In this document: piece by piece, positions 16,490 to 62,907 of the stretch
Position numbering within the stretch: position 1 is the stretch's first letter
Layout of the letters: each line of letters begins with the position of its first letter
IMG/VR virus record: IMGVR_UViG_3300024999_000055
Location: 42,331 to 106,330 of that record
From: a virus
DNA length: 64,000 bases
Reading direction: 5' to 3' (one strand)
Position numbers and translations under genes: made by a program
The notes under the pieces: model-generated
Databases searched by the model: none
What the model was told of the DNA's origin: nothing
Seen by the model: the letters and a program-made list of their open reading frames with translations, nothing else

Positions 16490-16600
16490 TTCTTTTTTAT
16501 TTTAATTTCATCACCAATCCTCGAATTTATTCAAATATTCCTATTTGATTTGTTAGATTATATTAACTCTAACTGGATGTAAACCTACACCCTCTATTCC
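16490..16600 (-). ncRNA. Probable TnpB guide-RNA scaffold / element right end
   Basis: TnpB proteins use an RNA made from the 3' end of their gene and the element end. Here the last codons form a 7-bp hairpin GGGTGTA/TACATCC, and 25-60 nt past the stop is a second imperfect palindrome GAATATTTGAATAAATTC. Both are typical of IS200/IS605 right ends. The exact border and guide start cannot be fixed without an empty-site comparison. Confidence 0.4.
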
Positions 16601-17767
16601 CTCTGCAAAAGCATCAGGAAATACTTTTTTAATAATCTGGTATGCACCATTTAAGTCTGCATTAATAAATTCACCTCCATTACTTTGAAATAATCCTCTT
16701 GCCACTCTTCTACTTTTATTATAATTTTCTTTACATGGTATTTCACCATCAAGAAAACTTGTACCAGAAGTATATGATTCTTCTGTTTCAATAAAATTAA
16801 TACCAACATTCTCACATTTGTATTTAATCTTTTCAATAAATAAACTATGTGGAATACCAACAAAATTCTGATTAACTTTCCTACTCATATTACTTTCTTG
16901 TTTCCAATCTTTATTTTTACCTACTACCACAGTATCGATATTATTCTCAATGCACCAATTAATTATGTATTTACTTGTTTTATGTATATAATCAGTTATT
17001 TTATTATTTCGTTTATTAGTTAATTGCTGTAGTTTATTACTCCAATTTTTATCATGTTTTAATTTTAAATCAGATTGTTTTTTAGATTTTTCTTTATTAT
17101 AATACTGATTTATAGATTTCAATGGTTTACCATTAATTATGAATGATTGTAATCCAATATTATTCCCTACAGTCGCCAAATTATCTATTCCAATATCTAT
17201 CCCTATTATATTGTTATTATAACTTATTTTTTCTGGAACATCAATTTCGTAAACAATTTCCATTATATATGTATCACTTTTTGGTATAAATCTCACTTGC
17301 ATAAGTTTACCATTTACATTAGTTCTTATTTTATTATTTAATGGTTTTAATTTACTCCAACTAAATCTTAAATAACCATCACTTATACTGAATTTAATAT
17401 TATCAATTATTAAATTATATCTTCCTTCTTTTTCTTTATAATTAGGAAGTTTAGGTTTACCTAAAAATTTATCTTTGTTTTTATTCCATTCTTTAATACC
17501 TGCAAAAAATGACCTCCAATTTTGATCAAGTAATTTTAAAGTTTGTTGACCTACATTGCTCCCTATTTCTTTATATGGTTCAGATTCTTTACACAACTGA
17601 AATAATTCATTATATCTAATCCATTTTTTATTATTTATAAATTCTTGACGAATTATATAATTAGCATAATTATAAAGATTTTTAGATTTAAAACATAACT
17701 CATCTATTAATTTCCATTGTGGATTATTCTTTTTAATGATATGTTGTTCAACTCTATTTGTTTTCAT
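16553..17767 (-). CDS. tnpB: TnpB-like (OrfB, IS200/IS605) RNA-guided nuclease
   Basis: 404 aa. Full OrfB layout: helical N-terminal half and a RuvC fold with D191 in GIDIGIDNLAT and D371 in NADLNGAYQI. The usual RuvC-II Glu position is G283 (VVVGKNKDW); the nearest acidic pair is E329/E330 in EESYTS, the arrangement seen in one large OrfB subgroup. The four-Cys zinc finger between motifs II and III is missing (only one Cys). No tnpA transposase gene lies nearby, so the element is not self-mobile. It has a long leader and its own promoter (17958-17986). Confidence 0.85.
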   Translation of the reverse strand: MKTNRVEQHIIKKNNPQWKLIDELCFKSKNLYNYANYIIRQEFINNKKWIRYNELFQLCKESEPYKEIGSNVGQQTLKLLDQNWRSFFAGIKEWNKNKDKFLGKPKLPNYKEKEGRYNLIIDNIKFSISDGYLRFSWSKLKPLNNKIRTNVNGKLMQVRFIPKSDTYIMEIVYEIDVPEKISYNNNIIGIDIGIDNLATVGNNIGLQSFIINGKPLKSINQYYNKEKSKKQSDLKLKHDKNWSNKLQQLTNKRNNKITDYIHKTSKYIINWCIENNIDTVVVGKNKDWKQESNMSRKVNQNFVGIPHSLFIEKIKYKCENVGINFIETEESYTSGTSFLDGEIPCKENYNKSRRVARGLFQSNGGEFINADLNGAYQIIKKVFPDAFAEGIEGVGLHPVRVNII

Positions 17768-55411: not shown

Positions 55412-55972
55412 TTAACCATTACCTGCAAATTCTCCGAATATTTCTTTCCTTTTTACTTCTGCAAAAGCACATGCCTCATCAAATTGGTCAAATGGGAATT
55501 TCCAATTGGATCTTTCTCCATTTCTGCAAAATTGAACCCAATATTCCTGTTCTCCACCATATGTTTTACATAAATTTACATTCCTAACACCAGTTTTGGA
55601 ATTCTTATTGGCTCCTTTTCTATGAGCCGAGTTTTCGCTGGATTCTGATACCCTTAGATTATAACGTCTATTATCCAATGTTTTCTTCATATTAATATGA
55701 TCAACTACTTGACCTTCTTTTGCTCTCATTATGTAATTATGCAAGTATGTTGTTTCCGAAATTGATTTTCCATTTTGAACACCTATATATTCACTATGAG
55801 CAACATAAAAATTGTCTATATTAGGTCTATAAACTACATTCCATATCGTATTTTTAATTCTTTCATAATCTTCTATATCAATTAAACACTCATATAAACC
55901 TTGAAACTTACCTCTGTTTCTTGGTATATAAAATTTTACATATTCATCTTCATATTTATAATCAACAATCAA
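55412..55972 (-). CDS. HNH homing-type endonuclease
   Basis: 186 aa. HNH core: YLHNYIM...VVDHINMKKTLDNRRYNLR with the DH..N..DNR..NL signature of phage HNH (AP2-associated) nucleases, followed by SKTGVRNV and an EYWVQFCRNGERSNWKF strand unit like an AP2-type DNA-binding domain. Cuts one or two strands of DNA at a target and spreads itself. TTG start 6 nt after AAGGAG. No intron is visible next to it. Confidence 0.88.
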   Translation of the reverse strand: MIVDYKYEDEYVKFYIPRNRGKFQGLYECLIDIEDYERIKNTIWNVVYRPNIDNFYVAHSEYIGVQNGKSISETTYLHNYIMRAKEGQVVDHINMKKTLDNRRYNLRVSESSENSAHRKGANKNSKTGVRNVNLCKTYGGEQEYWVQFCRNGERSNWKFPFDQFDEACAFAEVKRKEIFGEFAGNG

Positions 55973-58636: not shown

Positions 58637-58920
58637 CTAAGATTTCAAATCAATATTCTTTAACATTCCTGCATACATTTCATCATCAGGTCTATTGTCC
58701 ATATGCCATTGTTCAAATTCTCTTAACTTAATAATATCTTTTTCAGTTGTTTCATCAAGATAAAAATACCAGTTCTAAGTACATTGCAAGAAGGAGTTGA
58801 AAATTGAACAATAGAATTTAATGTCCCATAATTTGCTTCCGTACCTTCTAAAGCAACAATTCTTCCATATACACTTTTATTAAGAACTACTGGTTGTCCT
58901 AAATATGTTTTATTTAACAT
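58637..58920 (-). CDS. SH3-like phage protein, apparently frameshifted, preceded by structured RNA
   Basis: ATG 58920 with GGAG. First frame 65 aa (VVLNKSVYGRIVALEGTEAN ...) and stop 58723. Adding one base to the T5 run read on the minus strand (58762-58766) continues as YLDETTEKDIIKLREFEQWH... to a stop at 58637, giving about 94 aa. The 5' leader holds the structured element 58965-59128, so this gene may be its regulated target. Confidence 0.55.
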
Positions 58921-58964: not shown

Positions 58965-59128
58965 TGTATAGCAAAATACCCGATTACGTCCAGTAACTCA
59001 CGGTACGGTCTAATTTAGTTCTACCATGTCACCTTTCATCTATCGCATGGATTCCCTGGGAACAGGATACTTGTCTGTTGACCCTTACTAAATCAAATAA
59101 TCCCCACTGGTTTACCGTTTGCTATACA
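58965..59128 (-). ncRNA. Structured, GC-richer RNA candidate of unknown family
   Basis: About 44 percent G+C in the core by hand count, versus a strongly AT-rich surround. A perfect 11-bp terminal stem (58965-58975 with 59118-59128) encloses: AATTTAGT/ACTAAATC (59012-59019 with 59087-59094), hairpins CCATG/CATGG (59024-59028, 59046-59050) and GGG+AACAG/CTGTT+CCC (59058-59084), plus ACGGTA/TACCGT (59000-59005, 59113-59118) and CCAGT/ACTGG (58990-58994, 59106-59110) which interleave as a pseudoknot. One pair is G-U only if read on the minus strand. Sits in the leader of the 58920 gene. No known RNA family recognised; no ORF. Confidence 0.7.
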
Positions 59129-59155: not shown

Positions 59156-59367
59156 TTAACGATCTTCATTATTGCATTGGAATCCTTTTACTCTGTAATT
59201 ATCATTATCGTCTATATCCCATATAATCAACCATTTTAATTTACAATTATTACATATAGTTTCAGATTCCAAATAATCTGTTTCAATTATTTTTAATTTT
59301 TACCACAACTAGGACAAAAAGCAATTGGTATATTAGTTAAATTAAATTTAATTTTACTTAAATCCAT
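59156..59367 (-). CDS. Zinc-ribbon protein, apparently frameshifted
   Basis: ATG 59367. First frame MDLSKIKFNLTNIPIAFCPS-CGKN stops after 24 aa. Adding one A to the A5 run (59297-59301) continues KLKIIETDYLESETICNNCKL... to 59156, giving CPSC...CNNC, a complete zinc ribbon. That the second Cys pair appears only after the repair strongly supports one gene. First gene after the promoter at 59409-59437. Confidence 0.6.
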
Positions 59368-59408: not shown

Positions 59409-59437
59409 ATTATATTTATAATCTGTTCCATTGTCAA
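59409..59437 (-). promoter_or_regulatory. Sigma-A-type promoter (TTGACA-17-TATAAT)
   Basis: TTGACA (59432-59437), 17 nt, TATAAT (59409-59414), perfect. Upstream of the zinc-ribbon gene and the structured RNA region. Confidence 0.85.
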
Positions 59438-62295: not shown

Positions 62296-62907
62296 TTATC
62301 TCCATAAATGTTTACAAACTTCATCATACAACTCAAAATCCACATTTCTTATACTACTAATATAACTTTTTATAGTTTTTACATCTAACTCAAATATTTC
62401 ACTTGTTGCTTTTAAAGTTAATTTATCATTAACAATAGTCTTGCAAAGATTCAATCTTTCTTTAACATTTTTCATTTTTCTTATTCCAGAACGTATTTTG
62501 ATAGATTTAAGTTTATTTAATTCTATCATTTCTAATACCATAACATATAATTCAGGGTCATTATATTTAACATAGTTATGGAATAAATAATATATAGAGC
62601 GATTACTAGAATCAAAATGTATTCCAGTTTGTTTCATTGTACTTCCACAAATAAAATATTCACAAATTTCTTCATAGATACTGTTTAAGTTTTTCAATAA
62701 ATGATTTTGATGTTTTTCTTTTCTATCTTTTAAACAATTTTGGACTTTTGTATGTAATTCGGAATCAATATTTTCAATCATTTGTGTATAATTAAAAACA
62801 GTTTTAAAATTGATCCCGAATATATCTGCTGTTTTTCTATAAGAAAGATTGTGTTCTACTATATGTTCACATACTTTAATGATTAGTTCTTTGTTTATAG
62901 GTTTCAT
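62296..62907 (-). CDS. Triple SpoIIID-like helix-turn-helix protein, 203 aa
   Basis: Three similar units, each with a short helix pair and then the pattern D-x-E-L-Y/H: LSYRKTADIFGINFKTVFNY ... IDSELH, STMKQTGIHFDSSNRSIYYL ... NDPELY, LTLKATSEIFELDVKTIKSY ... VDFELYDEV. This is the layout of SpoIIID-type transcription factors, but in tandem triplicate. Likely a DNA-binding regulator of host or phage genes. The third unit keeps the best consensus. Confidence 0.78.
   Translation of the reverse strand: MKPINKELIIKVCEHIVEHNLSYRKTADIFGINFKTVFNYTQMIENIDSELHTKVQNCLKDRKEKHQNHLLKNLNSIYEEICEYFICGSTMKQTGIHFDSSNRSIYYLFHNYVKYNDPELYVMVLEMIELNKLKSIKIRSGIRKMKNVKERLNLCKTIVNDKLTLKATSEIFELDVKTIKSYISSIRNVDFELYDEVCKHLWR

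What the first reader, a model, noticed from the sequence alone, without database searches (positions are those of the whole stretch)
58965..59128. GC-richer, multi-branched RNA with an interleaved pseudoknot
A perfect 11-bp outer stem, an inner three-way junction with two hairpins, and two crossed pairings (ACGGTA/TACCGT and CCAGT/ACTGG) in 164 nt, in the leader of a gene, at about twice the surrounding G+C. A G-U pair that works only on the minus strand supports transcription in that direction. It does not match riboswitches, ribozymes, tRNA or tmRNA that I can recall. It could be a new riboswitch, a ribozyme, a mobile RNA or an intron remnant.
Basis: partly seen in the sequence, partly recalled or inferred. 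Interest (0 to 1): 0.82.

Follow-up and report, generated by a model that had tools for sequence, protein, structure and literature searches.

The report
Movable structured RNA of phages
A 164-letter RNA gene, kept almost unchanged in three related bacterial viruses but sitting at a different place in each genome, appears to be a small folded RNA of unknown job that the viruses shuffle around like a gene cassette.

Summary
The finding is a real structured RNA. The window lies in a 106-kb fragment of a 25% G+C phage. Window 58965-59128 (minus strand) is the most G+C-rich 150 nt in the window and codes for no protein. I found two other copies in related phages, all exactly 164 nt (6, 11 and 13 differences), with homology ending at the outer 11-bp stem. 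One helix (RNA 44-48/61-65) carries two fully compensatory pairs (simulation P = 0.006). Three pairs are G-U in some copies in a way that works only on the minus strand.

The crossed pairing was not confirmed. ACGGTA/TACCGT is broken in one copy, CCAGT/ACTGG survives, and a nested alternative fits as well.

The three copies lie at three different sites in these phages, and relatives show two of the sites without the RNA. In one copy the RNA has its own perfect sigma-70-type promoter, and the next gene has another. Downstream genes differ every time. That argues against a riboswitch and for a stand-alone RNA moved as a cassette, probably acting in trans. Rfam has no match. No further copies turned up in viral contigs, phages, plasmids or one genome scan. 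What the RNA does is not known.

The parts
58965..59128 (-). the 164-nt RNA element (RNA position p = window 59129 - p)
   Evidence: homology to two other phage copies of exactly 164 nt that starts and ends at the outer stem
59118..59128 (-). outer stem P1, 5' strand (RNA 1-11)
   Evidence: perfect 11 bp; C-G to U-G in copy G5
58965..58975 (-). outer stem P1, 3' strand (RNA 154-164)
59081..59085 (-). covarying hairpin, 5' strand (RNA 44-48)
   Evidence: GGGU/AUCC, GAGU/ACUC, GGAU/AUCC at RNA 45-48/61-64: two pairs changed on both sides; null P 0.006
59064..59068 (-). covarying hairpin, 3' strand (RNA 61-65)
   Evidence: RNA 62-66 can pair instead with RNA 71-75
59087..59096 (-). core helix 5' strand (RNA 33-42)
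   Evidence: 10 bp, invariant in all three, so no covariation evidence
59010..59019 (-). core helix 3' strand (RNA 110-119)
59046..59050 (-). second hairpin 5' strand (RNA 79-83)
   Evidence: CCAUG/CAUGG; last pair lost in G5
59024..59028 (-). second hairpin 3' strand (RNA 101-105)
59106..59110 (-). CCAGU strand of the proposed pseudoknot (RNA 19-23)
   Evidence: kept in all three, one U-A/U-G change; competes with a nested fold
58990..58994 (-). ACUGG strand of the proposed pseudoknot (RNA 135-139)
58981..58988 (-). mini hairpin CG-UAAU-CG (RNA 141-148)
   Evidence: C-G to A-U double change in G5, but only 2 bp
59409..59437 (-). promoter TTGACA-17-TATAAT upstream of the zinc-ribbon gene and the RNA
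   Evidence: 12 of 12 consensus match on the gene strand
59156..59366 (-). zinc-ribbon gene just upstream, frameshifted in the window and intact in G028 (L040:438-650)
58723..58920 (-). downstream 65-aa ORF, 44 nt after the RNA; unrelated to the downstream genes of the other copies

Best explanation
It is a small non-coding RNA gene of a group of phages, probably of Firmicutes. Shown by sequence: it is a conserved 164-nt unit with a selected secondary structure, read from the gene strand, and it occupies different intergenic sites in different phages. In one phage it stands alone between its own promoter and the promoter of the next gene. In two it follows a zinc-ribbon gene and would be made as the tail of that transcript. 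Inferred: the ends are held by the outer stem and the RNA folds into a compact multi-helix body that works in trans, by binding a protein or another RNA during infection. It spreads as a promoter-linked cassette through recombination at the recurrent promoter and leader sequences between the small genes.
For: Three copies of fixed length 164 nt, with homology ending at the outer stem. Window-G5 identity is 93% (11 differences of 164), against 87.5% in shared coding DNA and 82% in shared intergenic DNA. Two double-compensated pairs lie in one helix (null P 0.006). Three G-U/standard pair exchanges fit only the minus strand. All sense frames have stops in all copies; the antisense ORF is stopped in the window copy. 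There are three different sites: G5 upstream of MSDIFKVW and the ligase region; the window between two genes whose G028 counterparts (54.5-55.6 kb) have no RNA between them; G028 at 2.1 kb. G003 has both G5 flanking genes with a single promoter and no RNA. In G5 a 12/12 promoter ends 29 nt before the RNA, and a second 12/12 promoter lies between the RNA and the next gene.
Against: Only three sequences are known, so most helices are invariant and the fold is not settled. No expression data exist. In the window and G028 copies there is no separate strong promoter for the RNA. No intrinsic terminator was found. No target or partner is known. About a fifth of 164-column stretches of the shared W-G5 genes are nearly as conserved (14 or fewer differences), so the conservation level alone is not extreme.
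Confidence: 0.55

Rival explanations
1. A cis-acting leader element (riboswitch or attenuator) that controls the gene after it and has been reused in front of different genes.
For: In the window the RNA ends 44 nt before an ORF with a ribosome-binding site. Several alternative folds share the same segments, for example RNA 61-66 pairing with 44-48 or with 71-75, as expected of a switch.
Against: The three downstream genes are unrelated. In G5 a perfect promoter lies between the RNA and the next gene, and in G028 the next start is about 130 nt away. No terminator was found in 57-61 kb of the window, and no Rfam riboswitch was found.
Confidence: 0.17
2. An RNA-processing or stability element in polycistronic early mRNA, for example a 3' end or RNase site after the zinc-ribbon gene.
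For: It directly follows the zinc-ribbon gene in two of three phages, and the gene and RNA moved together as one block of about 400 bp.
Against: In G5 no ORF lies between the promoter and the RNA. The complexity and sequence conservation exceed what a simple processing hairpin needs (inference).
Confidence: 0.13
3. A self-mobilising nucleic acid: a small transposon-like element whose 11-bp terminal inverted repeats are the outer stem, or a ribozyme or intron relic.
For: Sharp ends at an 11-bp inverted repeat and three different insertion sites. A TnpB homologue is encoded in the same phage.
Against: No clear target-site duplication by eye; one copy per record. In the window and G028 the shared block includes the zinc-ribbon gene, so what moved exceeds the repeat. 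No reverse transcriptase domain found, and no Rfam intron, ribozyme or omega-RNA match.
Confidence: 0.1
4. A tiny open reading frame with its own ribosome-binding site: the invariant stretch AGGTGAC-ATG-GTA-GAA-CTA-AAT-TAG encodes MVELN.
For: Shine-Dalgarno-like AAGGTGA/GAGGTGA and ATG are kept in all three copies.
Against: Spacing to ATG is short, five codons is minimal, and other parts of the RNA are equally invariant.
Confidence: 0.04

Closest known systems
PeSL promoter/stem-loop cassettes of T4-type phages (Arbiol 2010 and Comeau 2014, as cited in PMC4503421)
   Same: short intergenic cassettes with a promoter that shuffle genes between related phages
   Different: PeSLs are promoter-terminator stem-loop motifs; this is a conserved multi-helix 164-nt RNA with no terminator found, and a promoter directly precedes it in only one copy
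ToxI-type antitoxin RNAs (type III toxin-antitoxin; PMC5772629)
   Same: small pseudoknot-capable RNA connected with phage biology
   Different: no tandem repeats in the element and no toxin-like gene recognised next to it
vrRNAs of phage VIPR systems (PMC13142463)
   Same: about 100-nt phage intergenic RNAs with a structured, sometimes pseudoknotted, part
   Different: no YNNGG repeat tract is seen here, no hypervariable guide segment, one copy per record
GOLLD/ROOL ornate RNAs (PMC12286853)
   Same: compact multi-helix bacterial RNA of unknown function
   Different: those are large RNAs; this one is 164 nt and matches no Rfam model

Membership tests
any Rfam 15 family | covariance-model match | tested here: not met
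   no hit at gathering score in the window, nor at E up to 10 around the element, nor at E up to 3 around the other copies
structured RNA gene (general) | compensatory base changes on the transcribed strand | tested here: met
   two double-changed pairs in helix 44-48/61-65, null P 0.006; the whole-structure shuffle test is not significant with three sequences (115 of 500)
riboswitch | constant place upstream of one class of regulated genes | tested here: not met
   three unrelated downstream genes, one with its own promoter
riboswitch | ligand binding | not testable with these tools
   needs in-line probing
type III antitoxin RNA | tandem repeats cleaved by a co-encoded toxin | tested here: not met
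   no tandem repeat inside 58965-59128
retron msr-msd | reverse transcriptase gene in the same genome | tested here: not met
   no RVT_1 in the three carriers (G000, G005, G028), all of them possibly fragments
TnpB omega-RNA | located at the 3' end of the tnpB gene | tested here: not met
   tnpB at 16553-17767 is 41 kb away; the only match in the record is the element itself
group I/II intron | intron core structure inside a gene | tested here: not met
   no Rfam intron hit; intergenic in all three phages
PeSL cassette | promoter present | tested here: met
   12/12 promoter directly before the RNA in G5
PeSL cassette | terminator-type stem-loop | tested here: not met
   no terminator-like site in window 57-61 kb
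self-cleaving ribozyme | self-cleavage | not testable with these tools
   needs an in vitro assay

The most novel reading that the evidence does not exclude
A new class of phage-encoded structured RNA that acts in trans on the host (for example on RNA polymerase, the ribosome or a defence system) and is exchanged between phages as a promoter-linked RNA cassette, the RNA counterpart of a moron gene.
Probability: 0.4. Interest if true: 0.75.

Novelty: new variant of a known kind. Interest (0 to 1): 0.52.

Why it matters
Few phage RNAs that are neither tRNAs nor riboswitches are known, and some of those that are (antitoxin RNAs, anti-CRISPR RNAs, RNA-guided systems) act at the centre of phage-host conflict; this is general knowledge. 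A short RNA that is kept almost unchanged while being moved to new genome sites is a clear target for a function test.

Tried and rejected
Exact-pattern scans of viral contigs with five different patterns gave only the same two extra copies. Two further contigs (L086, L087) were chance matches in G+C-richer sequence with no match to the RNA model. The two genome hits (L044, L045) are chance 19-mer matches with no similarity beyond the pattern. BLAST against phages and plasmids gave nothing. Protein searches with the downstream 65-aa ORF and the zinc-ribbon protein gave no new carriers. Coding on either strand was rejected: stops in all sense frames, and the antisense frame is stopped in the window copy. 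Complementarity of 11 nt to phage transcripts gave one weak, A+T-rich hit at about 6.76 kb, taken as chance.

Full report
Setting. The window is the last 64 kb of a 106-kb virus record of 25% G+C. Its genes include a DnaB-type helicase, a RecJ-like nuclease and a TnpB homologue. Its helicase resembles those of Geobacillus, Enterococcus and SPbeta-like Bacillus phages at about 31% identity, so a Firmicutes host is likely but not shown. Nearly all genes are on the minus strand.

Observation. The element is 41.5% G+C and the most G+C-rich 150-nt stretch of the window; two of the next richest, at 36.5 and 53.7 kb, lie in ORFs. Its folding energy alone is not remarkable (z = -1.7). Rfam finds nothing.

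Relatives. A BLAST search of 27 related phage records found a second copy, in G005, at 92% identity. A pattern scan of 2.9 million viral contigs found a third, in G028 (locus L040). All three are exactly 164 nt, and outside the element the flanks of G005 are unrelated to those of the window. Four other patterns gave no further copy, nor did one genome scan, blastn against phages and plasmids, or a covariance model run over all 29 held records.

Structure. The three sequences differ by 6, 11 and 13 positions. Helix RNA 45-48/61-64 reads GGGU/AUCC, GAGU/ACUC and GGAU/AUCC: two of its pairs changed on both sides and always pair. When the same substitutions were scattered at random, a conserved helix of four or more pairs with two such pairs arose in 0.6% of 5000 trials. 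On the opposite strand the best helix has one. The pairs 8-157, 47-62 and 23-135 are G-U in one or two copies, which would be A-C mismatches on the plus strand. The other helices hardly vary, so they are not tested. CGGT with the first ACCG, and CCAGT with ACTGG, are both intact and would make an H-type pseudoknot. A nested alternative that pairs RNA 12-17 with 133-138 has a good consensus energy. The shuffle test on the whole structure is weak with three sequences (115 of 500 shuffles do as well). I regard the outer stem and helix 44-48/61-65 as supported and the pseudoknot as open. A 2-bp hairpin at 141-148 also shows a C-G to A-U change.

Not a protein gene. All three sense frames carry stops in every copy. 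The one long antisense frame is open in two copies but stopped in the window copy, and it opposes the direction of the genes and promoters.

Position. In the window and G028 the RNA follows the same zinc-ribbon gene. The two share a block of about 410 bp running from that gene's start codon to the end of the RNA. This block sits at different places: the window's neighbours on either side have their counterparts at 54.5-55.6 kb of G028, without zinc-ribbon gene or RNA between them, while the G028 block lies at 2 kb. In G005 the RNA lies elsewhere again, upstream of the gene MSDIFKVW. Record G003 has the same two flanking genes with one promoter and no RNA between them. In G005 a perfect TTGACA-18-TATAAT promoter ends 29 nt before the RNA, and a second lies between the RNA and the next gene. 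Such promoters recur before other genes of these phages, on the gene strand.

Reading. The RNA is more conserved than the average of the shared genes of the same two phages (93% against 87.5%), is bounded by its outer stem, and changes place and neighbours. That pattern fits a stand-alone RNA gene which is moved as a cassette, most simply by recombination at the repeated promoter and leader sequences; this last step is inference. It does not fit a riboswitch tied to one regulated gene. That it acts in trans is inferred from the lack of a constant neighbour. Its target is unknown.

Known kinds. The movement resembles the promoter/stem-loop cassettes (PeSLs) of T4-type phages cited in PMC4503421, but the body is not a terminator loop. 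The primary PeSL papers were not held and not read. Antitoxin RNAs, vrRNAs, retrons, TnpB omega-RNAs and introns were each considered; a defining feature was looked for and not found (membership table; for vrRNAs by reading the sequence only).

Limits. Three sequences from fragmentary records, no expression data, and a fold that is only partly resolved.

Noticed in passing
window 59156-59366 and 58723-58920: Both ORFs flanking the RNA appear frameshifted; in the zinc-ribbon gene the window has five A where G028 has six. Sequencing error or real decay could not be told apart.
   Followed up: partly
window 16553-17767: A TnpB homologue (OrfB_IS605 plus Cas12f1-like TNB domain); no TnpA was looked for.
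   Followed up: no
window 55412-55972 and L040:2312-2875: HNH endonuclease-like ORFs lie 1.5-3.5 kb downstream of the RNA in two phages (the window match is below Pfam's cut-off); possible drivers of gene shuffling.
   Followed up: no
window 62296-62907: ORF with a SpoIIID-type (sporulation regulator) helix-turn-helix domain.
   Followed up: no
L039:8740, 11144, 11427, 11830 and window minus strand: Near-identical perfect sigma-70-type promoters (TTGACA-17/18-TATAAT) recur before small genes, all on the gene strand.
   Followed up: partly
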